DNA of 64,000 nt from Tomocerus qinae (lineage: Eukaryota > Arthropoda > Collembola > Entomobryomorpha > Tomoceridae): positions 11,807,501-11,871,500 of the forward strand of contig CM034549.1 in the NCBI GenBank assembly GCA_020055645.1, given 5' to 3'. The notes below the pieces were generated by a model, which was given only the letters and a program-made list of their open reading frames with translations, did no database searches and was not told where the DNA came from. Of this stretch, positions 1 to 23,702 are shown in pieces; position 1 is the stretch's first letter, and each line of letters opens with the position of its first letter. Both the position numbers and the translations under genes were made by a program.

Positions 1-2606
1 TCAAATAAGGAGTTCTTGGTCATTACAGCAGCTCATTGGTAAGTTCATAGCGTTATTAAAAATCATGTACAGCTTAGGATAAAAATAAAATATGTCTTCA
101 ATATTTTATAGTTTGTCTAATACAATGCGGAGTAAGAGAGTCCGACCTATTGAAGACTACAAAATTGTGCTCGCACCTGTCAGCAGTGACTATTCGACTA
201 ATTTAGGAAGCAGTAAATCTCAGATTTTCTCAGTGAGTACCTTTTCATAAAACTGACGATTTAATTGTTTTTGTAATTATTCTGGATTGTTTCTAACTAT
301 TTGTACTATTTTACTTCATTTACAGGTGAAAAAGGCTATTATTCATCCGAACTACGACTATGATTTGTTACAATCTGATTTGGGGCTAATATTGCTGGAT
401 GGAGAGCCCAAACTCTCGGATGTAACTCTTCCAGTTTGCTTCCCTACAAAGGATATGGCTAATAAAGAAGTCAAAGGAATGGGAATGGTAAGATTTTCTT
501 GAATGAACCGAAAAGTTGGCTATCTGTGCTATTATAGTAAAAAGAATTACTTCACGAACAAAATTACAGTTGGCTGGATTTGGAGTGGATGAATCTACAC
601 AAATATCAAAAGTACTGAATTTTGCTAAATTACCAGTAACCGATGCTAATGTATGCAACAGAGCTTTGGGAAAGGAACTGACTAGCATCGAGTTTTGTGC
701 TGGATTTGCTCATGGAGCGAGGTATGAAAACAGATAATATAATATCGGAGCTGATTTTTATTAGTGTTTTTATTTTTAGTGTTTGTAGCGGTGACAGCGG
801 CGGGGGCCTCATTTTCTTGGATCCACTCAGCAAAAGACTTTTCATTCAAGTAAACTGTTATTTTTACATCGGAGAAGTACTTTTGCCAACTAGTATAGCT
901 TGGTGATTTAAATATTGATTTAATTTCAGGGAATAACAAGCAATGTGGATCTAAGACCTCTAACACAGCTGAAATATTGTCAAAATTACAATACCTTTAC
1001 GCGTGTATCTTCCTTTGTTGAATGGGTTTATGATACTGTTGACGAGTGGTCTTGCGTGGATTGTGACCTTGTATTCCAGGTGAGCTACATAAAGCACATT
1101 ACGTATAATTTTCATGTTTTGGCCTGATTTATTGAAAAATTAATTCTCTCCTTTGGCAAATAGGGGGACGTAAATGGATTGCAATTTAATTCAAAACTAG
1201 GCTATCCTCAGGGTAAGATTATCTTTCTATTTTATCTTTCCTGTGTGTTTGTGACAATTGAATGACTCATGTTTGTTAATTTAGGTCCCGCATCTGACGG
1301 AAGTTTTAGAGTGACGGTTTATTACAATATCAAAGATAAAAGTAAACCTTCCTATATCTACTAGAATAATTAATACTTTCAATCTCAATATTTGATGATG
1401 ACTGAGTGTCATCCAAATATTTCCAGTGCGTTGACCTATAATACAATATTACATGATTTTACTTAACCCTTTTGAAGGCAAGTACACAGAATGGAAGATG
1501 AGAAAATGCTCTTCACTTCCAAGCGATTGGAATAACGATAGACAATTTTGGGTGGATATCCATGGGCAATGTCTGCAGTTCTTCGAAGGGACATATTGTT
1601 CTGGTCGATCTTTAGTGCTACAACCTACACCTGAATCAAGTACTTTTAGATGGAATTTTCCCGACTACTCGATGCATTCGGTGAGTATTTGCGAAGAAAC
1701 AACTTCAAATGGGAATGGCAATTCAGGAGACAATGCCTCTGGAGGTTCAACCATCGGAGAAGGTAGTAGTCGAACTGTTGTAATAATTCTTGAGATAATA
1801 ATCTGCTATGTATTCTTATGGAATAAAATCCCTTAGAGCACAAACATAAATCAGCGAATTGTATGATTACTTTTTTCAGAAAAATACCAGTTGCAATTTC
1901 TTTAAAATAAGCTTTAGTATTAAAGAAAACTTATTTAACACACCCATTGCAAATTCCTTTCCCATCCTACATGGAATTAAATAGTAATTTTATTGTTGTT
2001 TTTGAAAGGAGGCAATTCGTATGAAGCAGTTGGTTTACAGGCACACAATTTGTATCGTATGAAGCATGGAACCCCTCCAGTTCGTCTGAGTGACAAGGTA
2101 ATTAAACAATTTCTGCATGCATAAGTGCGTCATAGCACTGGACTTGTAGATCATTCTTTGTTATCTTAATTGCTTGCACTATCAAGTCTCATGAATATTA
2201 TTTCAACTTGTGGGTTTAATAATTTAACTTTTTATGTCAGTTGAATATTCAAGCTAAATCTCGAGCAGACGAGCTCATAAGACAGACCAAATTGGAGCCT
2301 TCAAGGGAAGGCGGAGAGAATCTGTTCGAGATCACTGGAAGTCAAGACAGCTCTCCTGAAATTGTTGAGCAGGCTGTAAAAATGTGGTACAATACCATTG
2401 AGAATTATAGTTGGAAGAATCCACAAGCAACATCCTTCTCACAAATCGTTTGGAAGTCAACTACTGATATTGGCATAGGAGTCTCTCGATCTGGAGCGAG
2501 AACAGTTGTAGTTGCTAAATACTCTCCACCAGGAAATATTTACTACTATGGACCAAATGGAGACCGGGCTACGTATTTCAGAGACAATGTATTACGTCCT
2601 CGCTAA
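1..2606 (+). CDS. Gene A: S1 serine protease fused to a CAP domain (5'-partial)
   Basis: Eleven joined exons: 1-38, 112-232, 326-487, 570-721, 780-849, 930-1079, 1164-1212, 1285-1341, 1478-1762, 2009-2097, 2241-2606. All phases agree, giving 512 residues after the window edge. The sequence opens at the catalytic His (TAAHC across the first intron). The catalytic Asp follows in SDLGLILL and the Ser in CSGDSGGG, so the chymotrypsin-type triad is complete. Specificity position 189 reads Ser, so it is probably not trypsin-like. After the protease come about 100 residues resembling a beta/gamma-crystallin fold (FFEGTYCSGRSLVL, then FPDYSMHSVSIC) and a short Gly/Ser linker. A CAP (SCP/GAPR-1-like) domain ends the protein: AHNLYRMKHG, GGENLF, QIVWKSTTDIGIG, PPGN. 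It is presumably secreted, but the signal peptide lies upstream of the window. Genes B, C and D are paralogues. A poly(A) signal at 3123 may end the transcript. Confidence 0.85.
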
Positions 2607-4575
2607 CTTTTTAATCTACTATTTTTATAATGATAATCATCAGGAAGCGATGAAATGGATCATTAAAATAGGCGATAGGCAGCTATTTGTATTAGAATGG
2701 TAGTGATTAGTGATTAGGCATGTAGGATAGAAAATTAAATATTTAAACAACGAGACTGTTAGTATTTTGGTGGTGATTGCGGTTCAGCTTAGATTTAGAT
2801 AATATTATCCTGTATTTACTAGGAACTGCTTACTGGCTTATTGAAAACTGTTCTTTCTTTTCAAAGAAAACTTAATTGCTCTAGTAATCTATATTTTGAG
2901 TAATCTACACATTCTTATAAGAATTGTTATACGTTTTCGTTTACGCCTGTTATCGTTTGTATGTTTTCGAACTTAAAAGCGTATAGCTTACCTATTTAAT
3001 GTAGACTAAAGATTCGTCACAATATTGTATTACATAGTATCTGTTGAATGACGAAAAACACAATGCTAGGTTTTACTGATTGTTGTAACATTACTTATAT
3101 TGTGTCACTGAAATTGTCTATTAATAAACTATTTATTTTTCTTGTGTAGTTCACATGTACATTGAAATTGGGTCGACATAATTTTTGCATTTTATACAGG
3201 ATTCTGTTGTATTTTCTCAGATTTTTTATACTGAATCCCTGTAAAATGATTTACAGTATGACAATATCAATCATGGATCTATTGTACAACAGTTGACGAT
3301 GTGTTGATTAAAGATATCGGTTATTTAGCTTGGTGAACAGGAATTGTGATAAAAACCTATTAGATTTCTTACTGCCAGTTACTAAAAGAAGTAAATTGAG
3401 AATTGCCACTATTGTATAAAATTTTCTATTCAAACATGGATATTTTTCTAGAAAAGGGAATTTCTTGAGAAAATCAAAAGATTTTGACTGATAAATTAGA
3501 TAATTGCAGGCTGGCAAGGGATGTATCATAAATAGAAACGGTACTACAGACACGTAACACAAACATGCATCAGATGGTTTATCAATGATGATTTTAATCT
3601 CTTAACAGTAGAAAATGCATTGTTTCGCATGGAAAAGTGCATGTCATTAGTCATTATAGGTACATATAGGTAATAATTAAAGCAAACACACTTTCAATCT
3701 CAATATCAACCAGAAGCTACTTACAAATGCTAACAGACTCATGCAACGTGCCATGTACGATGTAGAATCCACTATATTATATTTATAGAGAAACTACTTC
3801 CGTCTAAAAGGATCGAGGATGACTTAACTTAATCGCACGGTAAACATATTAATTACATTCTTGGGACTACAAGGAATGTTTTTCCCTTTATCAAATAATA
3901 AATATCATATCATCATAGAACTGTGATGTGTCTTCAGCCATTTAGCTACAAACAATATGCAATCAAAGAAACTAGTACTATTACGATTCACAAATAAGTA
4001 GCAATGTGCCGGTACTAAAAAAGCCTGTTGATAATATAAGTTGATGTTAGCGGCACAAGTTAGCAATGTTCTATTTACGCTTCATTAGTGCAAAAAGGGG
4101 TTAACAAATTTGGTTGCTTGTTAAATTAGTTCTACGAATTGTTTTGGAATTAGGAACTAATTGTGTATGTATGTATTCACAGTTTGTGATTAGTTTTTGT
4201 TCTGGTTAGTTGCTGCTGTGCGATGGGAAACTGGGATACAAATGTCATAACAGATAGCAGTAGAGCAAGTGCATTTTTTTGCAATTTGCACGAGATTCTG
4301 TAACATGCACACAATCATATTGCAACTAAACAATATAAAGAACAAAGTCTATACCTCAAACAACTAAATTAATTTTAACAACTCAAACCTCATAAATAAG
4401 TATGTAAATATGATGCTGCAGAGAATGTGCCACAAATCTAGTACAAATCATATCGATTAAATATAGTTCCTCCTTTTACTCAGTTTGAAAACGTGACAAG
4501 TATAATAAAACAAGTCTTGCTATCTAAATTCTCATAATATGCATTGTTACAATGTAAACAAGAAATAAGAACACA
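2607..4575. other. 3' flank of gene A and intergenic DNA
   Basis: No supported coding exon on either strand. AATAAA at 3123-3128 is a plausible poly(A) signal for gene A. The rest is AT-rich DNA without repeats I could recognise. Confidence 0.5.
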
Positions 4576-4955
4576 TCATCCGCATTCACACTTGGTCTTA
4601 TTTTTAGCCATGCACAACCTACCATTATTTTTTAATTTTAATTGAATTGGACAACAATGAATTATGCAAGGTCCATACAATGCACATGGTAGACAACATT
4701 TTCCACAAGGAACAACTTGAAGAATTCATACATAAATAGATTAAAGTTTCCCACTGGCAATTTCATGAGTAATTTCTCAAAGAAACTTTATGCATTGAAT
4801 TTTGGTAAAAAAAGGTAACATCATAGGGATACGAAAATAATGGCAAGATGCATAAATCTGGCTTTCAACTTGACACATACACTGCTTCATTTCACGATCA
4901 TAAATTAAAGTAGGTTTCACCCTTTTTGTATTTTGTAGGTAGGTAGTGGTGGTTC
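4576..4955 (-). CDS. Candidate cysteine-rich small protein, last two exons
   Basis: The minus-strand frame from 4715 to the stop at 4576 codes about 46 residues with ten cysteines, in the order C-x2-CC-x2-C-x5-C-x3-CC, then three near the end. That is far above what AT-rich noncoding DNA should give. It is preceded by a CAG-like acceptor (AAG at 4716-4718). It joins in phase to an upstream exon, open from about 4955 and ending at 4881 with a GTATGT donor; that exon reads VKPTLIYDREMKQ. The intron would be 165 bp. No upstream exon with a signal peptide was found, so the start is unknown. It could be a disulfide-rich secreted peptide or the C-terminal end of a larger gene. Function unknown. Confidence 0.35.
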
Positions 4956-5672
4956 AATGCAATTGCACACTTGTAAGTAAGTAGAATGAGTGATAGGACT
5001 TGATTTGACAAGACATTGAATTGACTTTGTAGGTAAGGTGCATTACCAAGTTACTTTTCGTGTAATGACAAGCCTAGGCATATCAATACATGTAAATAAT
5101 CGAAGTTTGTGTACTTTTAACTTATTGGCAGACTTGTCTAGTTGCTTGTTAACTATTATTTCCCATTAAAAATGTCTCGTCATTGTCACCCATCATTTGA
5201 TAGTACTAAACTACTCTACTACCTTAGTACTTGGCTCATTGTCTCTAATAAAATGTTTTAAACTACATAATATTATACTCTCGTTAATCTCTAATAAGGA
5301 TTATAATAGCTTTTTTCCTTACTATACACAAATGTCTCTTTCGCGACGCGAGAGAGTTTAATCTAAATAAAATATACCTACATAGTGTATACATTGGTTA
5401 TTGCAGTTCATCATGGGAAGAAAACCAGTTTACAATCAGAGTAGTTAATATAGAGCTCTATCCCATCACCTACATGCATGAATGAGGGAAACCGGTAGTG
5501 CATTAATTACTGCAGAGCTATCAACGTCAAATCACATAATACACACAGCAAAACATCAAGTATCATCGCACACATCATCTCATCATTAAATGGAAGCAAC
5601 CCCAACCTGTTAAATACTATAATATAATCCATTCTAATAGAAAAGAAAATAAGTAGGTATATTGCCACTTAC
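4956..5672. other. Noncoding stretch
   Basis: I see no supported gene. A short GC-containing inverted repeat lies near 5338-5358 (ctctttcgcgacgcgagagag). It is probably chance, or a minor regulatory sequence. Confidence 0.4.
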
Positions 5673-6357
5673 CTGTAATTTCCAATGGAAAATGAGACAA
5701 AAGTGTTTCAGTAGTGTAGTAGTAGTATCACGATACGACTCCTGTTTTCTTATTCGTCTGCTGCCTTTGTTATGAGATACACTCCGTATATTATATTCAT
5801 TATGTATAGCATTTAGATTCAATTTCTTCATTCCTACCTGGGTGCTTTGTCTCTTTATTGAATTGCAATTGAGTCGTATGTACATACCTTGCAATAATAT
5901 AATTGGAGTACTTTGCTATATTTTCTCTCTCCATATCACAAAATAATCTTCTGTTCTTCAACTATTTTAAATCCTAGTGACTCTTCTACATGTAAGTACT
6001 TCTTTTGCATAGAAGGTGGATGTGGGTGTGAATTCCATCATTAGTTATAAATCTTAGTGCAAAAACAGAAGTTTACCTGAAAACACCTGTTCATCTGATT
6101 GCTAACAACTAAACATACACACACATTATTAATATCAATAATAATTCTTCATACTAACTTGCCAAGCGTGGGCAGCTCCCTATATTATATAATTTTATAT
6201 CGTACATTTTACCTGTCAAGTGAGACGATTGTCTACTCAAAACAGGCTCTTTGTATTTTCTTTGAAACGGATCTTCTCCTTGTTTGTTTAGTCTGCGAAT
6301 GGAATCCTTCAAGTCAACGTTTGCATCCAAACACTCCAGCAAACTTTGAACACAATT
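5673..6357 (-). CDS. Candidate antisense exons of an unrecognised gene
   Basis: Two minus-strand segments join in phase. The exon from at most 6357 down to 6213 contains SLLECLDANVDLKDSIRRLN and then PVLSRQSSHLT, and ends in phase 1 at GTAAAA. The second exon, 5764-5673, reads SRRIRKQESYRDTTTT and ends at a perfect GTAAGT donor. An alternative exon with good splice sites lies near 5850-5890. The residues look protein-like, with a leucine-spaced helix followed by a polar tail. I recognise no family and found no start codon. These exons and the cysteine-rich exons at 4576-4955 share a strand and might belong to one gene. Weakly supported. Confidence 0.25.
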
Positions 6358-6478
6358 TTAACTAACATTGCTATTTACGTCACAAACTATTCTAGTTTTC
6401 AAGAAAAACGAATAATCGCCAATACATTTTGATTTTCTCCAAGTTTTGAAAAATTAATCAGTGATTTTCACAAAGAAG

Positions 6479-9332
6479 ATGGAGAAAATTTTATACATTG
6501 TTCTTGTTACAATACTTTCTACGGCATCAACTCAAGCACAGGATCTCACTTGCCCTCCGTTGATCCCCAACTCTGTAAATTCCTAATCACTTTTTGTATT
6601 TATTTGACTTTTTAGTGGAATGCTTTTCCGAATCACATGGATATGATTTATTTATCTAAAATGATACTAATACTTTAGGGTGTTGTCGTTCGATGCAAAT
6701 CTTTGGAGAAAACTTCCTTTTCGTCTATTGATTGCACTAGCGACCTCCCAATAGGATCCGAAGCCAGTTATGCTTGCAAGAAGTATTATGTCAGCTCTGA
6801 TGGAGATGATACTGGAGGAAAACTTGTATGTGGGGAAGATGGGAAATGGTCAAAAATGTCAACATTTGATTCATTCTTTTGTAATTTAGGTAAATATCTT
6901 TGGGATTAAAATTACTTTTCTTTGCGCAATAAATTCATGCAAATCTTTGTTTAGAATGTGGAGTTCCTGTAAATTCTTCCCTCAACACAATCTCCTCATT
7001 CATTGAAAATGATGGACAATTCTTCTTCGAAGGGGAGATTTTTCCTTGGCATGTAGCTATTTTCAGATCTTTTGGAGGACCAAATTCCAGAAAATTCGTT
7101 TGTGGAGGAACACTAGTAAATCCATCCAATAGGGGATTCCTGATTTTAACATCTGCCCATTGTCTTACAAAATCTAAAGACTCAGTCGAAACAGAAAACC
7201 CTAGCGTTTTTACAGTTGTTTTAGGACCCATCAGCACGGACTATTTAGCAAATCAGCAAACACCAGATTCTCAAATCATTCCTGTAAGTTAAACCTGATA
7301 TTCCTATCACTTGCATAGTAAATCGTCATCCTCTATAAGCATATAACGTGTGTTAATTGATTTGATTTGAATTGTTTAAGGTGTCGCAAGTGGTTATCGA
7401 TGGAGAATATGATCCTCGTAATTTCCAATCGGATATTGGTGTCATGCTTTTGGAAGGTCGTGTTCGAATAAGCGACAAAGTGCGACCAGCTTGCTTTCCC
7501 AATCGTTCTGTTGCAAATGCTCAAGTTCAGCCAGGAGTTGAATCCTATGTAAGATTCATATACACTTAATTTGAAAAAATATATCTTCCTAAGTTTCATA
7601 AAGCAACATAGAATATATTATTGATCAATCAATGCATATAGGGATCATTTAATTATTTTGGTTTATTTTTACTAGATTCCAGTAATTCAAAATGAGGAGC
7701 TGCATTACCAAGATCAAGTTAAATTAATTGTTTCAGAACAAGGTGAATGTCGAAGGGAGTGTAGCAGAATGCCAACAATTACAGAATTCTGTGCTACACA
7801 TACTCCAGGTACTATAATTCCCAATCACACATTGTGTCGTTTGTTTAAGCATGTCTTACAATTCTCATACAATACTCTAACATGTACTAGGATCAAAAAA
7901 TTAACAAAAGTGTGTATTGACAAAGAAACTTTTTCAATGCTATGTGAAAGTGAGATGTAATACGCTGTGCTTTAGTTCATAAACCTTGGTACCTAATTTT
8001 TACTGAATGATGTGTTGAACTGCACCTTTTGTTGTTTTGTCAACAGGCTCTCTCAAGTTGGCCAAGTCAGACAGCGGAAGCGGTTTGGTTTTTTCTGAGT
8101 TTTCAGATGATCCTAAACGTTATTATATACAGGTATGTAGAAATGTTATTGTTGCGTATATGTACCTATTTAATTGTGTGACTTTTGCCATTTGATATAT
8201 CATTGTAGGTCTGATTACCTATTTCTTAATCTTAATACCTTTGAAAACGGCTATGAGTCTATCTTATGCAAAGATAAACAAAAAATAGTGTCTTAATGGT
8301 TTCCTGTGTTGATTCTTCGCAGGGGATAATGACAAAAGTGGCAGATAAGTCAGAAAGGTGTGCTAAGTACCATTCTTTCACAAGCATCAATGTTTTTACA
8401 GACTGGATTAACAAAGTTCACGAAGAACTGTTAGAACAACAACGAGGAATTTCTTCTGCTGTAAGTTTAAATATTATTTGCAAATAAATACATTTCTTCT
8501 ATAATATTTATGATTTTATGTTCTAGGAGGTTCCTATTACCATTGTAAATACACCAAAGCCATTTAAAACAACCACAACGACAACACCAGCTCCTACGAC
8601 TACAATATCAACAACTACCGAATTGCCCACAACTCCATTTGCCGTACCGGATTCTCCTTCTACAGATTTATCTGCTCCTCTTAATTTCCCAGGTAAATTT
8701 CTTAATTCCCCAAAGAATTTCCAAGAATCTAACAAATAAAAATCATTTCAGAGCATGGCATGGTCGGACTTCGATATCATAACATGTACCGTCGTAGACA
8801 CCAATCCCCCGATGTGAAGCTGAGCTCTAAAGTAAATAAATTCTCTTGAATTAAAATAGGGCATTTTTGTTAAGGTTATTTTATTTTCATTGCTACTTAT
8901 CTAGATTGATAAATTAATCTTAACTATGGTTATTTACAGTTGTCAAAGGAAGCACAAATGTGGGCAGATTACTTGCTGAGAGAAAATAAATGGGAATTCA
9001 CAACTGGAAAAGATTACTCGGAGAATATATTCCAATATTTTGGTCCTGTGAGTAATACAGATGCAGTGAGATTGGCAGTTAAGAATTGGTACGACTCTAT
9101 CAACAAGTACAACTGGAACAAGCCAGAAGCATCGACGTTTACGCAGCTAGTTTGGAAGTCATCAACACATATCGGTATAGGAATTGCAAACAGAGGAACA
9201 AAGACAGTTGTTGTTGCGAACTATTACCCTAAAGGTAACGTGTACTATCTTGGACTTGGAGATAGAGCAAAGTATTTCAGAGATAATGTTCTGCCATTAC
9301 GTGGAGGGGAAGAGGAAGAGGAAGCAATCTGA
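6479..9332 (+). CDS. Gene B: secreted sushi + S1 protease + CAP protein
   Basis: Ten exons: 6479-6574, 6679-6889, 6955-7283, 7381-7548, 7676-7808, 8047-8132, 8323-8460, 8527-8692, 8752-8831, 8940-9332, giving 599 residues. The start is the ATG opening a signal peptide (MEKILYIVLVTILSTASTQA). Next comes a sushi/CCP-like domain of about 75 residues with paired cysteines. The S1 protease has FPWHVAIF, CGGTL, His in TSAHC, Asp in SDIGVMLL and Ser in KSDSGSG. The usual Cys before the active Ser and Gly193 are changed (A-K-S-D-S), so the substrate pocket is atypical. A Thr/Pro-rich, probably O-glycosylated linker (exon 8527-8692) leads to the CAP domain (RYHNMYRRRH, SENIF, TQLVWKSSTHIGIG). Likely an extracellular processing or recognition protein. 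AATAAA at 10101 is a candidate poly(A) signal. Confidence 0.9.
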
Positions 9333-10830
9333 GACTAAGTAAAAGTAAGAGTCTCTCGTCGTAATCGTACTATAATGTAGGTAATAATAATGCATATATA
9401 CGAGGGAATGACATTATCGTAGTAAAACGATAAGAAATCACATTGTAGTACTTAAAGTAACAATCACTCGCATACAACTTGACGAAACAACGCAAAAATT
9501 GTTTTATGTAAACTTATGTACTTGATTGGATGATACTTTACCACGTAGAATGTGTGAGAATGCACTTTTGCGATAACCACAACGGACATATACACGACTA
9601 CCTACCAATACTCAGACTTATATAGACAAAGCAAATAGAAAATAAGTGAAAAATAAGTGTTAGCTTGTTACTGTTCTGTTCTCGTTCAATGTACTTACTA
9701 TACACACGTTTTTATTACTAAGGATGTCATGTAAGAATGCTAATAAGTACTAGATGCGTTTTTAATATTATTATTAATCTGACAAGAACTTGATGGAATG
9801 CAGATAGAAAGAAGAGTAGAAACATCGAAACAAATATTTTAAGACTGCCATGTACCAAGTTAGAATCAAATGTGGAAGTTATACCCTCAATACCATCTTG
9901 TTGAGTTGACTATTGCAAAAAAAGATTATTAGTGCATTTTTACTGTTGCTGACAAACTATTTAGTATTAGTAAATGCATTTGTTTTTGTACAGCGTACAT
10001 TGTACATAGTATTATTAATCAACTTTCTATCTTGGTTTATGTAGTTTAGCCTTATAATAATGGCATGATCATGTGCTTTTGTCGTGTCAAATACTTTTGC
10101 AATAAATATTTATGACTTTCGCAAAAATACTTTTGATTCCATTTTACTGGGACTCAAATGCATGCACACCCTCAAGACCCAAACTACCTAACCTGTTAAT
10201 GCTGTATTTATTATATCTGCTATCCTAGGTGATTGAACTGATCTTCAGAATCTTCACACTCATTAACATTATATTTATGAGCAGTTTACGAGCGAGATCT
10301 CTCTAATGTTTCTCTTAGCATGACAAAGCGACTTTAACTTCTACAGGTACCAACAACTAAATACCATAAATACAGAATTTAATGATTATTGTCCTTGAGA
10401 AAATCTTACACTCACGTCACAAAGTCACAAACCAAAAAGGTAGCTAAGCTTAATAATTGTTGCACCTAACATATTTCTGGAGCAAAAACCTCATTATGGA
10501 TACTGCGACGTACACCCCACGTCAACATCCACAAAATTGTTTCCTTTATGATCATCGTTCTGTTAAACAACAATAATTATAACATTTTTGCATATTATCA
10601 TCTACCTAATTCTATTGCCTTACTTAAGGCCGGCAATACAGATGGACAGAAATATCTATTTGCTGTTTATTTCCCACCTGTGAATTATTTTGCACTCGTT
10701 CCAAAACGGGATGTGGCAGTAATTGAATAGTTTCATGCTTGGATAGGTCAAGTTGAGATAGGTCACTGCTATTTACTTTAAAGTTTCATGCTTTAGTTCA
10801 TCAACAATCCTAAAAACAATAAATTCTACC
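9333..10830. other. 3' flank of gene B and intergenic DNA
   Basis: Contains the probable 3' UTR of gene B and the promoter region of gene C. Short open frames near 10548-10730 have no splice context or family resemblance. I see nothing else. Confidence 0.5.
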
Positions 10831-12221
10831 ATGAATAGGTTTTTTACGTTACATCTTGCTTTTCTCCATATTTCATGCATTTTGAATTTCGTATCGTCAT
10901 ACTGCCCACCATTAGTCGGTCCAGAGGTTCGTTTTACTATCTTTAACTTGACATACAGATATTATATGCGCTATTTTCTAGCATCTTATACCCTTGGAGG
11001 TACATTTTAGTAAATAAAATTCGTAATTTTTATTTAGAAGACAAAGATTTCCTGTAGACTCCCCAACGATTCGCAGTTTTCCAATTGCTCCTCCTCCTGG
11101 CTACCAAATGGGACAATTGCTCGCTATGAATGCGAAACAACTGAAGATAAGATCAGTGGTTACATTTTGTGCTTGACGTCTAATGATCATTCCATTCATA
11201 AAAAAGAGAGCGCAAATTCGACAGATCTACCTTGTGACTTAAGTAAAATGGAGTTTTACATTTTTCTGATTGCATAAAAATATATTTGTGTGTACTAATT
11301 TTGTGTTTCTCTAAAATGCAATCTAGAACGAGACTTTTCCGTTCCAGAAATCCATATATTTGTAAGATTTTGAATTTCTATTGTGCTTATAATTTTATCC
11401 ACTGAAATGACAATTCTTAAATCAATTAGGGCTATTTACCAGCTATGAATTTTACAACACCAAATCCAAATTATTACGAAAGTGATTCTACCGCTAATAT
11501 TACCTGCGATGATGAAGATGAAAATGATATCCAATTAGTGGAAGGTATTTTTTATGATTGTATACTTCTTTTGTAAATAATTGATAATAAGGAATTTAAT
11601 GCCAAAATTCACAAGGTTTGGAATATCATACAGATTACGAGAGATTGGCCCTAAAAATGCATAATACCTTTCGAATTCGCCATGGATCACCTCCTTTAAA
11701 GCTAAGGAGTGATGTAAATAATTTTTTCAATGATTTAAACAATTAGAATAAGAACTATCTTTAGATTAGATATGAACTAATGTAAAGTTGTAATTGTCAA
11801 AATCTACATTTTTGTTATACAGCTAAGTGTTGCAGCACAAAAATGGTCTGATCATCTCTCTGAAAATGACATATTCGATCTTTCCAAATCCGATTTCTTT
11901 GGACAGAATTTATTCAATTCACAATCAAAAAATAAAATTCAAGCTATAAGTGATGCCACTCAAAATTGGTACTACGAGGGGATGAAAGCTTACAACTGGA
12001 CCAACATTGAAAAAAATTGGGAGAATTCTTTAGCTTTAAATTTCGCTCAGCTTGTTTGGAAATCAACAGAATATTTGGGCATCGGCATTTCTAACTGGAG
12101 TGGCGACCAAAATGGAAGTGTTGTTGTAGTATACTATTATCCTACTGGAAATGTAGTAACGGAAACTGAAGAACCTCCTGGAAAACACTTTATAGAAAAT
12201 GTTCACCCACTAAATACATAA
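10831..12221 (+). CDS. Gene C: secreted sushi + CAP protein without protease domain
   Basis: Six exons: 10831-10926, 11038-11242, 11327-11361, 11430-11544, 11616-11713, 11823-12221, giving 315 residues. Exon 1 is 96 nt, the same length and phase as in gene B. It encodes a signal peptide followed by CPPLVGPE, the same sushi start as B. The second exon carries the cysteines of one CCP-like module. Where B has its protease, C has only about 50 residues in two small exons (VPEIHIF, ITCDDEDEN), with no His, Asp or Ser motif. The CAP domain follows (MHNTFRIRHGSPPLKL, GQNLF, AQLVWKSTEYLGIG, PTGN). It is best read as a paralogue of B that lost, or never had, the S1 module. Confidence 0.85.
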
Positions 12222-12351
12222 AAGTAGGCTATGAACTCATTGGTCTTTGGAAATGGGGAAATTCTCGAAAATTTGCTTTGAATTTACGAAAATGGTTTCG
12301 GTGGAGAGCTTTTAAACTGCAAAACGATGATAACATATGTAAGAAGGACGC

Positions 12352-14066: not shown

Positions 14067-15718
14067 TCTTCAATCCGACCAATCTCTTATTTTGAAAATG
14101 ATTTTTTATATTCCTAAATTCACTGGTCTTCCAAAAATTCGTAGGAACAGAAACAAACTAAATTATTGACGTAGTGGGCCATTCTCATATCCATGAGTAT
14201 TGAGGATACTGATTTCCGTATTATTATGAATTATGAATATTATACCTTGCAGCCTTTAAATTTAGCATTCTATGATAGTTTTGTTGTACTAGAACGTAAT
14301 TTTACTTTTAGACACCTCCTTTTGAATTATAACCTGAAGGGATATTTACAGATTGAGGAAATGGCAACCGCAGTTATGTCATTATGTCACAGCATAATTT
14401 TAACCATAAAATTTTTATTATGGATTGGGCATTCTTCACCTTCAAAACTGATTGGCTAAATGACAGCTGCGGTTGCAATATCTATAGTGTGATAAATGAG
14501 AAATAATAATATTAATATTGAATGGGCGGAGGATATTATTTTTTGAAAGAAATTATGTTCATTAGTTGGGAATTGGGACCTCAAAGTAATACTATCACAA
14601 TCACAAAGAAAAATATTCTTGTGTGAATTTATGAATGTATATAGTGGTACTCTAATCGATTAAAGATATAGATTCAAAATTGAAGCTTTAATATGGATTA
14701 TTGTAGGCGACGAAAAGCACCGAACTAATAAAAACGGGTTTCATACTCTCCCAGTTTAGAAACGAACATTTGTATAATTCATCAATCTTCATGAATGAGA
14801 GGTAATTTTCATTGTAACATAATACATGATGGTGTGCGAAGATATACATTCCATGTTGCATTATTAAATATCTATCTATAGTATGTATAATCTGTAGTTA
14901 TAAAATGTGGGTAGACCATTCAGTTTGAAACACCTCTATACCATATTGCACGATATGCTACAATAAAAAAAATGTTGAAAGCCGACAAAAGGTCAATACA
15001 ATGAATGTTAATGTTGAATTGGGTAAACAATTAAAGCATAAAATGACATGAAAATTGCAAATTTTAGCCAAGCAATTTAACAACCTTGCTTCTAACTCCT
15101 ATTGTTATTGAGAAGACATAAAGAAATCATATTTTCTTTTGTAGACCCCCCAGAGAAGTGGATAATAATTTAATAATAGCTAGTAGACCCTATGAATTGA
15201 TCATAACAAATGAAACCATAACTAGTCCCGAGTCCAGATTCCATACATGCATGAGATTTAAAAGTGAAAATACATAGCTTACAAAAATAGGGAAAAGAAA
15301 ATAAATAATAACAAGAAGTAAAATGTAAATAGTAAATATCACGTTTTTTGCACCTGTCCATATACAAAATCGTTCTTATCATTCATAATTTTGTAATGGT
15401 AAAATAGCAATTCTACACCTGAGAGTTGGGTAGATGATGGTTTGGGATATACTATGAATGAGAGAGGGAGAGAAAGTGGGACTGGGACCATAATATACAA
15501 TGGGTGACTGAACAGATCTAAAGAGCGCGTGAATATCCTGGATAAGTTGCGTTATTTGAAATCGATAATTGTTGCTGCTGGGCTGTCAACATTTCTGTAA
15601 AGTTTTAAAACTTTTTCAGATGAAAAGCTTTAAATTGCCAAATATTTTTTGTATAAGATAAACAAACGATTGAAAATCGTTCTGTAATTAAGTTACTGAA
15701 GAGGAGAATCTATGCGAG
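14067..15718. other. Intergenic DNA upstream of the receptor and KXD1
   Basis: Head-to-head spacer between the minus-strand receptor and plus-strand KXD1. It holds a 113-bp inverted-repeat element (14364-14476). Open frames at 14193-14459 and 15170-15382 show no splice or family support. Confidence 0.5.
14364..14476. repeat. 113-bp hairpin element with ~20-bp terminal inverted repeats
   Basis: The left end GCAACCGCAG-TTATGTCATT and the reverse complement of the right end, GCAACCGCAG-CTGTCATTTAG, match over about 17 of 21 positions, including a perfect 10-bp tip. The size and structure fit a miniature inverted-repeat element (MITE). No clear target-site duplication is visible. Confidence 0.45.
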
Positions 15719-16446
15719 ATGTCTGGGATTAGTCCACAAAGTGACGGCGGAACAAGTTCTAATGTAGAATGCTTCCAAAATTTTACAGCTCCAGAGGTAT
15801 TTGTCCAAGGATTGGCCGGAATGGTCAATCAACAAGATATAGACGCTATAATAAGATCTCAAAAATATATGTAAGTTCCAATTAATAAATTATTAACAGA
15901 AATTGTAGAATTTAAAAAATCTAATCGTAATCCTAAATTAATTAATTCCAATATTCCAAAGTAATAACCTATTGCATTACAGATCCCTTAGAATAATAAT
16001 TTAGGTTTATTAGTTCCCAAATACACGGACTAAAACTAAAATATTTTTTTACTTTTAGGCTACAGCGATTTGAAAAAACAAACGAAATGCTAGTTAACTG
16101 CAACGCTCTTTCGGCCAGCCGTTTTCAAAATGCTGTTGGAGATTTTAAAAAACATACTCAAATGCTCAGTGAAATGAGGAAAGATATCGATAATATTTTC
16201 CGAAGAATAAGAAATATAAAAGCAAAAATAGCCCAACAGTATCCTGACGCTTATAAAGATGCTGCTATCACCCAAAGGAAAGAAAAGGGTAAAGATGACG
16301 ACGACGACGATGAGGATGAAGAAGATGGAGGGGAGTCTTCTTCAATAAAATCTAAAATCTCGTCTGCATCAGCACCGGTTACACATCAACACACCATGGA
16401 GAAAAGCGAATCTGTAGACATTCCTAAGAGAACTGAAAGATTTTAA
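15719..16446 (+). CDS. KXD1: KxDL motif-containing protein 1 (BORC subunit)
   Basis: Two exons, 15719-15870 and 16059-16446, giving 179 residues. The core helix matches the KXD1 family: IIRSQKYMLQRFEKTNEML, then NCNALSASRFQ, then MRKDIDNIFRRIRNIKAKI. KXD1 is a small coiled-coil subunit of BORC and BLOC-1-related complexes, which position lysosomes through Arl8 and kinesin. The motif that names the family is altered: the expected K-x-D-L is read here as R-K-D-I. After the core comes an acidic run (KDDDDDDEDEEDGGESSS) and a polar tail, longer than in vertebrate KXD1. Start at 15719 is the first ATG and sits directly before family sequence. AATAAA at 16453. Confidence 0.9.
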
Positions 16447-16857
16447 TTCCATAATAAATTTATCTATACGAAACGTATCAAGTTTATTATGTTTTAAGCA
16501 CGATAATCGAAGTAGAGTCAATATTTACATAAATTAATTAAGTATGTCCTTATTTGCCATAATAAGGAATGAATATGGAATACGTGACACAAAACAATGT
16601 ATAATGTATATATATTAGTATTAACCAAAATATCTCGTGATTGTGATAAGTTTACTACAAGAAAATTCGTTGAGTATCGGACATCGGAAAGTGCACAATA
16701 TTATGTTCTGAATGTAATATGATTTTTAATACAGTAAAAAATATTACAAAATTATAAATAGAGGATTTTCTAAATTTTAATTCATGCAATTAATTAAATT
16801 TTGTATTCAATATGTACGTGCGTAATCAAAAATAATCAAGCCCATATTTTATGAGTA
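16447..16857. other. Convergent 3' ends of KXD1 and ACTR10
   Basis: AT-rich spacer between two genes that point at each other. KXD1's poly(A) signal lies at 16453-16458. No coding signal seen. Confidence 0.5.
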
Positions 16858-18460
16858 CTAATCATTTTTTTCCACTGTACTAAGATTTTTTAATGTACAC
16901 CAATCAGGCATGTATTTCATTTTCAGAAAACTTTCCCGAGAAAGACCTTGCAAAGTTAAGTAGTCTATTGAAGCACAATGAGAACCTCCCAACCAAGCTA
17001 AGTACCCTTCATTACATGGAGGATTGAAAAATTTGATTTCGTAGCCCCCAGAGCTAATATTGGGCTTAGATAAATTGTTTAGTTCCCGAACAAGTCTTGA
17101 TTTAAGGCCCGGTATTTGTGCAAGACTTCCCGTGAGAAGAATCGAAGATGCCAGAAGTTTTCTGCTGTCAATTGGGAGCTAAAAATAAATAATATATTTA
17201 TTTTGTTTGTTATATTATATTATAATATTATATTTTATATATTTTTTGCATTCTCTTTCCTATTCAATTCTACATGAATCTAAAAATAATAAAAACAAAT
17301 GTACCTTTTTTAATGTCTCCAAAATTATCAAGGGTAAAGATTCGCCATCCGGATCATCATTCTGGAACCATATTTCGGCTGGTTTCTCTCTCAGCAGTCC
17401 ATCAAATGTGACAATGTGGGATCCATCTACGAGGTACTGGAATGGTTTCAATTTCTCTGCGTCTCCTTCATTTACCGAGGCTGCAGTGCGAGTAAAATTT
17501 CCCACGAAACATGCATTCACTCGTAAATTTTCCAAAATTTCGTCCGTAATTAGTTCCAACAACTTTTCCGAAGACAAATCCTTGCAATACTGCATTGCCA
17601 AAGTTTTCAGGTTTCTTAAGATGAAAAAAAAGTCCCTCAATTGTTTTTCCATGTGGCAATTATAGATAATTCAAAAGAAAACAATATTGTACCATACTCA
17701 TCAAAAGTTTTCGTTCCAAGTCCAATGGTTTGAATGTGATTCAAAAGGGTACAACCATGAATGACAGGAATGACATTAATTTCATCTCGGCCGAAGTCGA
17801 CGACTAGAGCTGAGTGAGATCCGATTGCATTGGTAGCTGCTAATTGAAGGGGAAGCCACAGAATATTTGGTACGTCGAAATGAATGTACAGTACTTTGGC
17901 CAGCGTATTTCTCCATATCGTTCTTGCAAAAATAGGTTCCACAATCACAACATCTCTTTCCTTAGGATTTACCAAAAGATATCTGCAATAGTTCATTTCA
18001 ATTAACTGTTGTAAATGAATGTTAATCATTTAGCTTTACAATTTTACACGACGGCTTCAATTAACCAACTAATAAGCGAAAATCAATTTATAAACTTTTC
18101 TATCAATTTGTTAAAATCATACTTTGAATAAAGATTACGAATGAATTCGACAAGCATGTAGTATAAGTCCTTTTCGCTTTGAAAACTGCTCAAATATTGA
18201 CTTTGATTTTCTGCAGTTGTGACTGAAGAAGAGATAATACATCTTGGCGATGAATCGTATGCAAATCCAGCTCTAAAATTACAAATAAGTTTTAGTCTTA
18301 TGCAGTTTGTATATGCCAGAACAAACTAAATATAGTGGCCCATCTGGCCAGCGGTAATATAATCAACTTACTTGGTGAACAGATTTCCAATTTCTAAAAT
18401 AACCGGAAATTTATCGGTGTGTACGCCAAGTCCCTCATAGTAGAGAGGTGCAAGCGGCAT
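16858..18460 (-). CDS. ACTR10: Actin-related protein 10 (dynactin subunit), with apparent frameshift
   Basis: Five minus-strand exons: 18460-18372, 18273-18123, 17982-17698, 17614-17305, 17178-16858. The protein matches ARP10/Arp11 of the dynactin pointed-end complex: MPLAPLYYEGLG start, LLVNPKERDVVIVEP, LVVDFGRDEINVIPV, AWLGGS, and the C-terminal MPDWCTLKN. Dynactin links dynein to cargo in the cytoplasm. Exon 2 is 151 nt where 150 is needed: AGFAYDSSPR is read in one frame and ISSSVTTAENQ onward in the next, so one base is extra at about 18239-18242. No other acceptor or donor resolves it. Either the assembly has a base error or this copy is broken. All other exons join cleanly. Confidence 0.88.
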
Positions 18461-19730
18461 GTTAGCAAAATCCTGCAGTTGACATATCAAATAATAATCA
18501 CATGTAGCATTAATTACGGTTATAAAATTAGATGGACAAACAAAGGGAGAAATATTATATTATTTAGTTCCTGATACCTAGACTATAGTTAGTTAATTTT
18601 ATTGTATTTATTGTTATTACCGATTCAAAGCCAAGATAACAATGCCTATAATTCAGAATTAGACAGAAATGTAAACAATACAAAAATGTTACACCTACAG
18701 CCGATAGTTTTATAAGGTAGCTTTATTGAGTAGTTGAATTTCTGAGACAGCAACTACAAAAAAGTCAAGATTTTGTGGTAGTCATATTTCAATGTAATTT
18801 TCCCGCATTCTTAACCATTCAATGATGTTGTTAATTTCGTCACGCTCAGTCTTTCTTTCCCCTGCTACCATTCTATTCCCCCTTTGTTGCGTTGTCCAGT
18901 CCTCCTGGACTTCTTCATGGTACTTTCCAGTTACTTTGCAAATAACTATATTCCTTGTTTCCTAACCAGACCAAAGGATTTATATGATAACCTGATAACA
19001 AACATGATCAATGAGACGCATGGTTTGACTATGAGTGTCATGTCATAGTCGTGTTATCGTGTCCTACATTTGTGGAAGCTAAATAATTAATTGAATGGTA
19101 ATGGTTTTATAGTATATAGTTAGTTAGGCAGTTTAGTATGACTTTTAGCAAACCGGGTTGTTTGAGGATTTATGAACACCTTCTTGCATTAGTTGTATAA
19201 CCAGTAAATTGGGAGATCTTGTTTGTGTTCAGTTGAAGTCTGATGAGTTGTAGTTAAATTGGGTGCAATATATTATATACCTCTCTAGGTTTTGTTTGCA
19301 TAGATTTGCAAGTGGTTTAGCCACATCTCTGCACATCGTATCACATATTATAAATTATAATATGTATGCATACAAAGACAAGTAGTTTAAAAAGACAAAT
19401 ACAATCAGTTTGAATTTTTATGAGTTGAGGTGCTATATCGTCCTTTGCAAACACGATATCAAATCAAGTTATCACTATCATAATTTGCATTTTGATACTT
19501 CAATTTCGTACACATGCATAAAAAAGCTTAAAAATGACAATGTACTTTTACAAACAATGATTATACAGAATGAAATGCAATTCTTGCCTATAGAATTAAG
19601 ATCAACTTGCTTGACCAAGCAAATCAAGTTCAAGTCCATTCCATCGCTTTCTTTCAGTTTAGAAAAGGTAACTGCTGTGCTAAGTGCATACTGAAAGCAA
19701 GAGAGTTGCACAAGCATATCACTTTAAAAA
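18461..19730. other. Divergent spacer between ACTR10 and gene D
   Basis: Holds the 5' flanks of both genes. Several short open frames near 19410-19717 overlap on both strands and have no supported splice sites. I see no gene here. Confidence 0.5.
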
Positions 19731-22700
19731 ATGTCCAATCTAAAGTATTTCTGTGTGACCTTGATTTTCTATTTGGTTGTGATTTGTGTCACTGTGAATT
19801 CTCAGAGATATTTGTGTAAATGGCCTAAAATTTCAATATTTTATTAAAATTACTAAAACAGAATGTATAAATGTGTTTATTTCTGTAGCATGTGGAAGAC
19901 GACCAGCTCGTCCTGGTGTGGCAATCAGACCAACAGCCAGAAATGCCCCCAAACCAGCCGATTCGGAAAATTTGGCCAGAAGAGATGATTTTCCATGGCA
20001 TGTTTCAATATTTCGAAGACCGAGTCCAAAGGAATCCTTTGCTTACAAATGTGGAGGAACTTTGATATCACCTTTCGGTAACAACCAGGAATTATTGGTA
20101 ATCACTTCAGCACATTGTCTCACCCGAGGAAATGGGACAACTGATGAGCCTGAGAGCGATTACGATACCATCAGAGTGATTTTGGGTCCATCGAGTAGCA
20201 ACATGAACGGAAATAGTGATCAGACTGGATCCCAACGACACTATGTAAAATACAATTAACAATAATAATATTAATTATATCATTTTACTACATCTGATAC
20301 CATAATATTTTCAAATAGGTTAAACACATAGAAATCAATCCAAATTATCAATTTCAAGGCTTGAAATCAGATGTAGCCCTAATCCAATTAAGAGATAAAA
20401 TTCGTTTAACAAAATACTCACAACCGTTATGTTTTCCTGTTACAAAAACCGAAGACTTACGACTACTTCCCGGACTTATAGGAGAGGTACACGTTTGACG
20501 TTTGATAAACATTAATTTGATCTTTGTAAAGAAAATAATTGCACATTTAATTAAATAGATAGCAGGATTCGGTTGGGATCCTCGTCGGAATATTTCAAGT
20601 GGGATGAGATATGCAGAAATGAAAATATTTGCTGCAAGTATTTGCCAGGAATATTTTCAGAAAAAGATAAACCACTTTCTGGAATTTTGCGCTGGACATC
20701 AACATGGTCAGCTTCTCTCCAACGAATTCAACACACAATACAAAATTACAATCTTATTCCTAATTATATGCAAATTATATATGTCTGAATTGGAATTACA
20801 TTTTCCCAGAATCCGCTGTTTGCAATTCTGACAGTGGAGGAGCTTTAGCAGTAGAGTTTCCAGCAGAAAGTGGGCAGTATCTCATGCAGGTAAAAATTCA
20901 GCAATTTAAAAGGTGGATTATGCACTATGAGATATTCGACAATATTATGACACAAAATAACGAAATATTTGCTCTAGTATTACCAAATCACCTTTTCTTT
21001 GACCTGCATGCATTTTCGATTCATGTCCAGTGTGCGAAACAACATCCACTACCCCCTCTACAAATATGAGAGTTTTCGTTCACACTGTACAGTTCCCATT
21101 CAAACTCGTAGACAAAAGAAATTTTCCGAGTCGAGGAAGGCTGACATTATAGGTGATAGTGGCCAGTGGTAGAAACTGGCACGAACGGAATGGGCCGACA
21201 GAAACAGTCCAAAATGGAAGATAATGTCCACACAGTTCCAATTTCAGCTTTTGTGTCGTTCTTTTGACATCAAGGCGTGTCAAAGGGCAAGGTCGACAGG
21301 CCAATACACTCAACGCCCCCTATAATAATACCAAGTGCAGTCTCCGCTAATTATGTAATGATATAAATTATAAAATTTCGTGTATTGTATTTATTAATTC
21401 CGTACTAAATGATATACCAAATTAAATATTAACAAAAAATATTAGGGACGGGAAATTTTCCCAATTTCTCCGGAATTTTTCCGAATTTCTCCGGAATTTT
21501 TCCCAATTTCTCCGGAATTTTTCCGAATTTCTCCGGAAATTTTCCGAATTTCTCCGGAAATTTTCCCAATTTCTCCGGAATTTTTCCCAATTTCTCCGGA
21601 ATTTTTCCCAATTTCTCCGGAATTTTTCCCAATTTCTCCGGAATTTTTCCCAATTCCTCCGGAATTTTTCCGAATTTCTCCGGAATTTTTCCCAATTTCT
21701 CCGGAAATTTTTCCAATTTCTCCGGAATTTTTCCGGAAATTTTCCCAATTTCTCCGGAATTTTTCCCAATTTCTCCGGAAATTTTCCCAATTTCTCCGGA
21801 ATTTTTCCGAATTTCTCTGGAATTTTTCCCAATTTCTCCGGAATTTTTCCGAATTTCTCCGGAATTTTTCCGAATTTCTTCGGAAATTTTCCCAATTTCT
21901 CCGGAATTTTTCCCAATTTCTCCCAAAATTTTCCCAATTTCTCCGGAATTTTTCCCAATTTCTCCGGAATTTTTCCCAATTTCTCCGGAATTTTTCCCAA
22001 TTCCTCCGGAATTTTTCCGAATTTCTCCGGAATTTTTCCCAATTTCTCCGGAATTTTTCCGAATTTCTCCGGAAATTTTCCCAATTTCTCCGGAAATTTT
22101 CCGAATTTCTCCGGAATTTTTCCGAATTTCTCCGGAATTTTTCCCAATTTCTCCGGAATTTTTCCGAATTTCTCTGGAATTTTTCCCAATTTCTCCGGAA
22201 TTTTTCCGAATTTCTCCGGAATTTTTCCCAATTTCTCCGGAATCGGAATTTTATAATTTATATCATTACATAATTAGCGGAGACAGCCCTTGGTATTATT
22301 ATAGGGGGCGTTGAGTTTCGACCTTGCCCTGTTGAGTGTCCAGCCTGTCGACCTTGCCCTTTGACACGCCTTGATGTCAAAAGAACGACACAAATGCTGA
22401 AATTGGAAGTGTGTGGACATTATCTTCCATTTTGGACTGTTTCTGTCGGCCTATTCCGTTCGTGCCAGTTTCTACCACTGGCCACTATCACCTATAATGT
22501 CAGCCTTCCTCGACTCGGAAAATTTCTTTTGTCTACGAGTTTGAATGGGAACTGTACAGTGTGAACGAAAACTCTCATATTTGTAGAGGGGGTAGTGGAT
22601 GTGGTTTCGCACACTGGACATGAATCGAAAATGCATGCAGGTCAAAGAAAAGGTGATGGGGTAATATTATTACATTATTCGTGGATTATTTTCTTTTAAA

Positions 22701-23702
22701 TTAAGTGATGTACTTTATTTAGGGAATTCTAAGCAGTACAGAATGGGACAGAGAAGTCCTGGAATCGAATGGAGTGTGTCTGAACTACAATATCTTTACT
22801 CATATCACCCCTTTCATAGAATGGGTCCAAAATGTACATGAAAAACTATTCAAGGTATTACTTCGATATTTTAAACACATAAACCTAACCTAACGTTATA
22901 TTATTACTTTTTAATTGTTTACTGTCCTATAGGCTCCTTTACCAACCGAAGCGACACCGAAAGAACCAATTGTCACTTTTCCTCCAGGTACACATATTAT
23001 ATCTATCTATTATACTTAATGATGAAGTACTTTCCAAATTTTCCCTAAACTTGTTTTGCCAATAATTATGGTTTGGAGATTTATTTCTGTACTTTATAAA
23101 AACAGGCACAGATCCACTTCCAGCTTTTGTGCGTTTGCCCGCTGAATATATGAGAGTTTCTTTAGATCTGCATAATCATTATCGTCAAAGACATTCCGCT
23201 CCTCCGGTTAAACTTAACGATCAAGTAAATTTCAAATGGTTTTAAGACCATTTAGCACAAATTTGTTTAAAATTCTTGAGAAGAAAAAATATGCTATTTC
23301 GAACTATGATTTTGTCTTTAGATGATTTTGGAGGCACAATCCCTAGCTGAATACCTAATTGAGAAAGACAATCTGGAACTGCCAAGTAATTCTGAATACT
23401 CTACAAATCTGTTTTCTATCCCAGGGGATCTTCCCCCGACTGATGCAGTTAGGGAAGCAATGGCATTTTGGTACAGAAGCAGTGTAGATTATGACAAGGA
23501 AGAACCAGTACCATCTTCATTCACACAACTTGTATGGAAAAAAAGTACACAAATTGGAACGGGTGTAGCTTCAAATGGAGAACGCACAGTGGTTGTAGTA
23601 CATTTTTGGCCAAAAGGAAATCAATATTACACAGGAGGCAGAAAAAGTGAACGGACGAAATTATTCCAAGAAAATGTCAAGCCAGCAACCAAAGGCTTTT
23701 AG
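19731..23702 (+). CDS. Gene D: secreted S1 protease + CAP protein
   Basis: Nine exons: 19731-19815, 19889-20244, 20319-20486, 20559-20706, 20810-20889, 22723-22854, 22933-22987, 23106-23224, 23322-23702, giving 507 residues. The first exon is a signal peptide (MSNLKYFCVTLIFYLVVICV...). The second has CGRRPARPG, FPWHVSIF, CGGTLISP and the catalytic His in TSAHC. Asp lies in SDVALIQL and Ser in CNSDSGGA (Gly193 is Ser). After a short Pro-rich linker the CAP domain reads LDLHNHYRQRH, STNLF, TQLVWKKSTQIGTG and PKGN. The donor at 20707 (GTCAGC) is weak and was chosen by phase. Intron 20890-22722 is enlarged by a foldback element. There is no sushi module. AATAAA at 23870 is shared by the convergent 3' region. 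Confidence 0.87.
20983..21378 (+). repeat. Left inverted arm of the foldback element
   Basis: Reverse complement of the right arm with few mismatches, including GACATTATAGGTGATAGTGG and the inner end TTATGTAATGATATAAATTA. Confidence 0.85.
21450..22243. repeat. 21-bp tandem satellite, about 38 copies
   Basis: The unit is TTCCCAATTTCTCCGGAATTT with single-base variants (CCC/CCG, GGAATTTTT/GGAAATTTT). Because 21 is a multiple of three, long minus-strand frames of repeating Lys-Ile-Pro-Glu-Lys heptads stay open, up to 269 codons. Each unit contains the palindrome TCCGGA. Confidence 0.95.
22247..22661 (-). repeat. Right inverted arm of the foldback element
   Basis: Mirrors the left arm. A short internal duplication makes it about 20 bp longer. 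Confidence 0.85.

What the first reader, a model, noticed from the sequence alone, without database searches (positions are those of the whole stretch)
1..23702. A family of S1 protease-CAP fusion proteins
Genes A, B and D each join a chymotrypsin-fold protease with an intact His-Asp-Ser triad to a GAPR-1-like CAP domain. Extra modules vary: sushi in B, a crystallin-like segment in A, a Thr/Pro linker in B. I know of S1 and CAP domains as separate secreted families, and this fusion is not one I recognise. Four paralogues within 24 kb suggest a recent, lineage-specific expansion, perhaps in defence or reproduction.
Basis: partly seen in the sequence, partly recalled or inferred. Interest (0 to 1): 0.85.

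Follow-up and report, generated by a model that had tools for sequence, protein, structure and literature searches.

The report
Protease-CAP fusion gene cluster
An animal genome carries a small cluster of genes whose predicted proteins join a serine protease to a CAP domain; the join looks real, the combination is unusual, and its job is unknown.

Summary
The fusion is well supported as gene models; no transcript was available. A, B and D are complete multi-exon genes with GT-AG introns, joining an S1 protease with intact triad to a GAPR-1-like CAP domain. A starts about 600 bp left of the window and also has a sushi domain. C has CAP but no protease. Left of the window, F is a fourth fusion and E a protease-less relative; two more protease-less relatives lie 1.6 Mb away. 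Of 70 CAP places compared with 222 S1 places, only those of this 56-kb cluster have an S1 place within 15 kb, bar one with its neighbour downstream (lists incomplete). The S1 domains group with two sushi-S1 genes, one ModSP-like, against six other S1 sequences (98/98). CAPs A-H form one clade (98/98) without the metal-site histidines; 15 distinct other CAP ORFs examined keep the second. 'Recent' is not supported: copies are 31-51% identical. The crystallin label is unsupported. Best guess: ModSP-derived secreted proteases with a CAP tail for targeting; function is inferred only.

The parts
1..2606 (+). Gene A, part inside the window (from the middle of exon 3 to exon 13). Whole gene: window -603..2606 = C4:11806897-11810106; SP-sushi-S1-extra segment-CAP, 665 aa
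1..1079 (+). Gene A S1 protease, exons 3-8 (exon 3 begins at -160; exon 8 also holds a few residues past S1); triad intact
1164..1762 (+).
2009..2606 (+). Gene A CAP domain, exons 12-13, entered in phase 1; no in-frame Met upstream of the acceptor
6479..9332 (+). Gene B, 10 exons, 599 aa: SP-sushi-S1-Thr/Pro linker-CAP
6679..6889 (+). Gene B sushi exon 2 (the first residues of the sushi domain are on exon 1 with the signal peptide; phase-0 intron between)
6955..8460 (+). Gene B S1 exons 3-7; triad intact, active-site loop SDSGSG
8527..8692 (+). Gene B Thr/Pro-rich linker exon 8
8752..9332 (+). Gene B CAP exons 9-10
10831..12221 (+). Gene C, 5 exons, 299 aa: SP-sushi-like (by eye)-linker-CAP, no protease
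19731..23702 (+). Gene D, 9 exons, 507 aa: SP-S1-linker-CAP, no sushi
19889..22854 (+). Gene D S1 exons 2-6; triad intact, active-site loop SDSGGA
22933..22987 (+). Gene D linker exon 7
23106..23702 (+). Gene D CAP exons 8-9

Best explanation
A family of secreted modular proteins made by exon shuffling: a sushi-S1 module of the ModSP type was joined to a GAPR-1-like CAP domain, and the S1 cassette was kept (A, B, D, F) or is absent (C, E, G). Shown from sequence: the domain order, the open spliced frames, the intact triads, the absence of the CAP metal-site histidines, the S1 and CAP groupings, and phase-1 introns on both sides of the S1-plus-linker cassette in my models. Inferred: the protein is secreted; the sushi domain takes part in recognition or protein contact; the protease is switched on by proximity or self-cleavage as ModSP is, since no ordinary R-IVGG activation site is seen; and the CAP domain, without its metal site, is a lipid-, sterol- or surface-binding tail that places the protease on a target membrane or microbe. 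The most likely setting is extracellular defence. I put the fusion at about 0.93 and the defence/targeting mechanism at about 0.4.
For: Models for A, B, D and E, F (one GC-AG intron in F). Four copies have the same S1-then-CAP order. In F one exon holds the end of S1 and about 110 further open codons of Ser/Thr-rich linker, then splices to CAP. No in-frame Met lies upstream of the CAP acceptor in A, B or D; from the last S1 exon to the CAP exon there are 291 bp (B) and 251 bp (D), with no ATG-led frame of 15 or more residues that has a hydrophobic run (7 of 10) (F not tested there). S1 of A, B, D, F plus two sushi-S1 genes of the genome form a 98/98 group against six other S1 sequences; one of the two has ORFs for LDLa (8.8e-11), sushi (0.0015, just under the cut-off) and S1 (5.7e-7) in a row. 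CAP A-H clade 98/98. Second tetrad His: 16 of 16 other CAP ORFs examined keep it (one a partial duplicate, 15 distinct), 0 of 8 in A-H. SmVAL4 and tablysin-15 lack both histidines, and SmVAL4 binds cholesterol (PMC4118828, passages). ModSP autoactivates after recognition (PMC10732536, passages).
Against: No transcript or protein evidence. B and D have Ser where the Gly before the catalytic Asp-Ser is usual, and B also lacks the neighbouring Cys and the GFG stretch, so they may be weak or non-enzymes. The fusions lack the LDLa repeats of ModSP, and D lacks sushi. Fusion S1 domains separate from the two sushi-S1 genes with only 64/71 support, several branches are long, and three of the six comparison sequences lack the active Ser and some are partial. 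Lipid binding is by analogy only, and cholesterol binding by yeast Pry1, which has the tetrad, was inhibited by EDTA and restored by magnesium (PMC4921858, passages), which speaks against a metal-free CAP working the same way. C, E, G and H lack the protease.
Confidence: 0.45

Rival explanations
1. Two neighbouring genes (a sushi-S1 gene and a CAP gene) have been chained by the reader and by me; the real transcripts end between them, or both forms exist through alternative ends.
For: Fusion of neighbouring genes is a known prediction error (PMC3927609, passages). In A, reading through intron 11 gives a hydrophobic tail and a stop, with AATAAA at 1822, so a protease-only form ending there is possible; B has AATAAA at 8483 and 8735.
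Against: Four paralogues share the arrangement. In A, B and D the CAP exons have no in-frame start upstream, and the gaps in B and D are under 300 bp. F's last S1 exon continues into the linker. None of the 16 stretches fetched around other CAP genes (L013-L028) has an S1 match.
Confidence: 0.07
2. The proteins are fused but work in reproduction or in saliva, venom or other secretions, as many CAP and S1 proteins do, not in defence.
For: CAP/SCP and trypsin families, as separate proteins, are both reported from spider venom glands (PMC3842942 and PMC6468893, passages). Strong divergence and Ser/Thr- or Asn-rich linkers (46 N-glycosylation sequons in E) would fit mucous or seminal secretions.
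Against: The S1 domain groups with sushi-S1 genes, one ModSP-like, rather than with the six other S1 sequences compared. No expression data either way.
Confidence: 0.3
3. The S1 domains of some members are serine protease homologues, cofactors or decoys without catalysis, with the CAP domain as the working part.
For: B and D have Ser where Gly193 is usual, B lacks Cys191 and the GFG stretch, and no IVGG-like site is evident in B and D (residue numbers recalled). C, E, G and H do without S1.
Against: His, Asp and Ser are present in 4 of 4 S1 domains; A and F keep the GDSG loop.
Confidence: 0.25

Closest known systems
ModSP / HP14-type modular serine proteases of insects
   Same: Sushi (CCP) domain followed by an S1A protease, as in ModSP (layout from the figure legend seen in PMC10732536); S1 groups with an LDLa-sushi-S1 locus of the same genome.
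   Different: No LDLa repeats in A, B, D or F; a CAP domain is added at the C-terminus; D has no sushi.
GAPR-1 (GLIPR2) and other CAP proteins
   Same: Best solved-structure match of the CAP profile is GAPR-1, 1smb, 1.6e-29.
   Different: Hydrophobic N-terminal leader and extra domains, and neither metal-site histidine.
SmVAL4 (Schistosoma) and tablysin-15, CAP proteins without the two histidines
   Same: Same absence of the CAP tetrad histidines (PMC4118828, passages).
   Different: No protease is mentioned as attached in the passages seen; described as CAP (SCP/TAPS) proteins.
Other S1 proteins of the same genome
   Same: S1 domain.
   Different: The six compared fall outside the fusion plus sushi-S1 group (98/98).

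Membership tests
S1A serine protease | Trypsin profile over the domain and His-Asp-Ser triad | tested here: met
   Pfam Trypsin in 4 of 4 (A, B, D; F); triad invariant in 4 of 4
S1A serine protease | Zymogen activation site (R/K before IVGG) | tested here: not met
   By eye: A VIVFG, F LISYG, no clear counterpart in B and D; none has R/K-IVGG (motif recalled)
ModSP/HP14 type | Sushi followed directly by S1 | tested here: met
   A and B by Pfam and models; F by eye only, Pfam made no Sushi call; D has none
ModSP/HP14 type | LDLa repeats before sushi | tested here: not met
   No LDLa match in A, B, D, F; present at L041
ModSP/HP14 type | Autoactivation on recognition and cleavage of a downstream protease | not testable with these tools
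   needs protein
CAP superfamily | CAP profile | tested here: met
   A 3e-17, B 1.2e-20, C 9.8e-16, D 3.1e-16; F 7.6e-14. E's CAP was not given to Pfam; it matches B's CAP by tblastn (1.7e-19)
CAP superfamily | His-Glu-Glu-His cavity tetrad | tested here: not met
   Both His absent in 8 of 8 by reading the alignments (A-F; A-H; second His also by script); known exceptions exist
GAPR-1 subgroup | Single CAP domain without signal peptide | tested here: not met
   Hydrophobic N-terminal leaders (by eye) and added domains in A-F; the GAPR-1 feature is recalled
CRISP | C-terminal cysteine-rich domain after CAP | tested here: not met
   The models of A-F end at the CAP domain or soon after; the CRISP feature is recalled
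Beta-gamma crystallin (segment of A) | Crystallin profile or fold | tested here: inconclusive
   No crystallin match in Pfam or PDB sequences; single-sequence fold pLDDT 45

The most novel reading that the evidence does not exclude
A previously undescribed class of secreted surface-targeted protease: a sushi-S1 protease carrying its own metal-free CAP domain that delivers it to sterol- or lipid-bearing surfaces, with protease-less siblings from the same cluster acting as competing or regulating partners, all produced by gain and loss of one frame-neutral S1 cassette.
Probability: 0.22. Interest if true: 0.75.

Novelty: new variant of a known kind. Interest (0 to 1): 0.52.

Why it matters
S1 proteases and CAP proteins are large secreted families, and the mode of action of CAP domains is poorly understood. 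A natural protease-CAP fusion ties a CAP domain to a measurable activity, so its role as a targeting module could be tested directly by cutting it off. Members with and without the S1 cassette side by side also make a neat case of exon shuffling within one cluster.

Tried and rejected
Considered and rejected: chance chaining of exons (four copies share the order); a genome-wide habit of CAP genes sitting next to proteases (70 CAP places against 222 distinct S1 places; within 15 kb only the C4 cluster rings, plus C1:123039091, whose S1 neighbour is 10.6 kb downstream. One search scored 150 of 701 candidates and printed 150 of 180 matches, so this is not exhaustive).

Tried without result: crystallin test by Pfam, PDB and fold. 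The CAP tree does not settle whether S1 was gained once or lost repeatedly: E+G+H without S1 group at 90/85; A, B, D, F as one clade is not rejected (p 0.43), nor are A, B, C, D, F (p 0.11). The CAP comparison used only ORFs with more than 80 profile positions found with the A-H profile in L001-L028 (leaving out L006 and L009-L012, the cluster itself); the stretches L015, L016 and L020 (with L001, L002) hold Pfam CAP matches but gave no ORF with that profile, so the more distant CAPs of the genome were not compared for the histidines. One partial duplicate was left out of the tree.

Literature: ten searches, eight of them (not 57 and 65) bearing on the fusion or its families, gave no title or abstract that I recognised as a protease-CAP fusion; (six phrases) found 0 papers. 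Only the top of some lists was shown (20 of 32, 15 of 796, 10 of 20). I saw passages of six papers. The library holds open-licence papers only. Novelty is therefore not established.

In one search several trypsin queries were wrongly picked ORFs; the test was repeated.

Full report
What was checked. The window is C4:11807501-11871500 of a 334-Mb, 115-contig genome. I rebuilt the genes exon by exon, reading splice sites from the sequence, and extended them beyond the left edge with L009-L012.

Gene models. A: 13 exons, window -603 to 2606, 665 aa, every intron GT-AG. B: 10 exons, 6479-9332, 599 aa; D: 9 exons, 19731-23702, 507 aa. C: 5 exons, 10831-12221, 299 aa. To the left on the minus strand lie F (C4:11778899-11775520, 9 exons, 641 aa, one GC-AG intron) and E (C4:11785115-11781622, 9 exons, 863 aa). 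The six genes cover 56 kb. I chose exon ends at splice sites that keep the frame, so the phase agreement is partly by construction; that such sites exist throughout, and that the copies share the arrangement, is the evidence.

Domains. Pfam finds Trypsin and CAP in A, B, D and F, CAP alone in C, and Sushi above cut-off in B and in A's segment given alone. For F, E, C and G Pfam made no Sushi call. E's part is alike A's sushi (31%, 4.4e-6) and G's part is alike E's (32%, 7e-10); F's and C's sushi are by eye only. Architectures: A SP-sushi-S1-extra segment-CAP; B SP-sushi-S1-Thr/Pro linker-CAP; F SP-sushi-S1-Ser/Thr linker-CAP; D SP-S1-linker-CAP; C SP-sushi-like-linker-CAP; E SP-sushi-like-very long Asn/Ser/Thr-rich linker-CAP (46 sequons in the protein). 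Signal peptides are judged by eye from hydrophobic N-termini.

Is the fusion more than a chain of neighbours? The order S1 then CAP recurs in four copies. The CAP part starts in phase 1, with no in-frame Met upstream of its acceptor in A, B and D. The gap from the last S1 exon to CAP is 291 bp in B and 251 bp in D; it holds the linker exon but no ATG-led frame of 15 or more residues with a hydrophobic run (shorter frames were not scored, and F was not in that test). In F one exon holds the end of S1 and about 110 further open codons of linker. Against: in A, intron 11 read through gives a hydrophobic tail then a stop, with AATAAA at 1822, so an additional protease-only form cannot be excluded.

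Is it special in this genome? CAP: 62 matches plus 8 further places. S1: 180 matches of which 150 are printed, from 150 of 701 candidates scored, plus searches with the S1 of A (28 places) and F (51 places). Comparing 70 CAP with 222 distinct S1 places, only CAP places of the C4 cluster have an S1 place within 15 kb, except C1:123039091, whose S1 neighbour lies 10.6 kb downstream; C and E ring in that list only because the fusions are their neighbours. In 16 stretches around other CAP genes (L013-L028) and in L047, tblastn and a motif scan found no S1. So the fusion was found at one cluster only, as far as these incomplete lists show.

Distant relatives. The CAP of B finds two genes 1.6 Mb away at 50% and 40% identity: G, SP-sushi-like-linker-CAP, and H, SP-linker-CAP; no S1 in that 10-kb stretch.

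Evolution. CAP A-H form one clade against 15 other CAP ORFs of the genome (98/98). Both metal-site histidines are absent in 8 of 8; the second is kept in 16 of 16 other ORFs examined, one being a partial duplicate. More distant CAPs of the genome were not reached by that comparison (see Tried and rejected). S1 of A, B, D, F group with two sushi-S1 genes of the genome against six other S1 sequences (98/98), though the split between fusion and sushi-S1 is weak (64/71), some rows are partial and three of the six lack the active Ser. One of the two, L041, has neighbouring ORFs for LDLa, sushi and S1 (not spliced by me), the layout of ModSP (PMC10732536, passages). In my models the introns into S1 and into CAP are both phase 1 (A, B, D, F), as are the matching introns of C and E and, by eye, G, so the S1-plus-linker cassette can come or go without shifting the frame. 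Whether S1 was gained once or lost several times is open. Copies are 33-51% identical in CAP and 31-39% in S1: not a recent burst, unless evolution is very fast.

Function. All four S1 domains keep the triad. By my reading of that alignment, with recalled numbering, none has Asp at the trypsin specificity position, B and D have Ser where Gly193 is usual, and no R-IVGG site is seen. CAP proteins that lack both histidines are known, and SmVAL4 among them binds cholesterol (PMC4118828, passages); yet cholesterol binding by Pry1, which has the tetrad, needs a divalent cation (PMC4921858, passages), so metal-free lipid binding here is uncertain. I infer a secreted protease whose CAP domain is a binding tail, most likely in defence; secretion and every later step are inference.

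Novelty. S1 and CAP families, and sushi-S1 proteins, are known. I recognised no description of a sushi-S1-CAP protein in the listings of the ten searches of an open-licence library (eight of them bearing on it), but no eukaryotic protein database could be searched, so it may exist in annotation or in papers not held. I file it as a new variant of a known kind.

Noticed in passing
window 20975-22669: Fold-back element in intron 5 of gene D: 327-nt arms 98% complementary around a 21-bp tandem array (21451-22243); 40 arms of 98-100% identity reported across the genome (40 of 107 candidates scored, its own two included), often in opposed pairs, so probably a young mobile element.
   Followed up: partly
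window 1763-1836: Reading through intron 11 of gene A gives a hydrophobic tail and a stop, with AATAAA at 1822: a possible membrane- or GPI-anchored protease-only form.
   Followed up: partly
L011, C4:11785115-11781622 (minus): Gene E has a linker of several hundred Asn/Ser/Thr-rich residues, with 46 N-glycosylation sequons in the whole protein, between its sushi-like and CAP parts.
   Followed up: no
L048 (C1:67757700-67760199, minus): An apparent S1-Thr-rich linker-sushi-S1 series, perhaps one protein with two sushi-S1 modules (Sushi 7.7e-5).
   Followed up: partly
C1:52865138-52887491: A run of S1 matches with a sushi match at its end that may be a tandem array of sushi-S1 genes.
   Followed up: no
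window 59480-63600: Trypsin-like exons of other S1 genes at the right end of the window.
   Followed up: no
window 52249-53037, 32357-32728 and 17640-18029 (minus): Neighbours include a radial spoke protein 3 gene (1.4e-39) and two actin-family genes (3.9e-11 and 3.1e-11), one of them between genes C and D.
   Followed up: no
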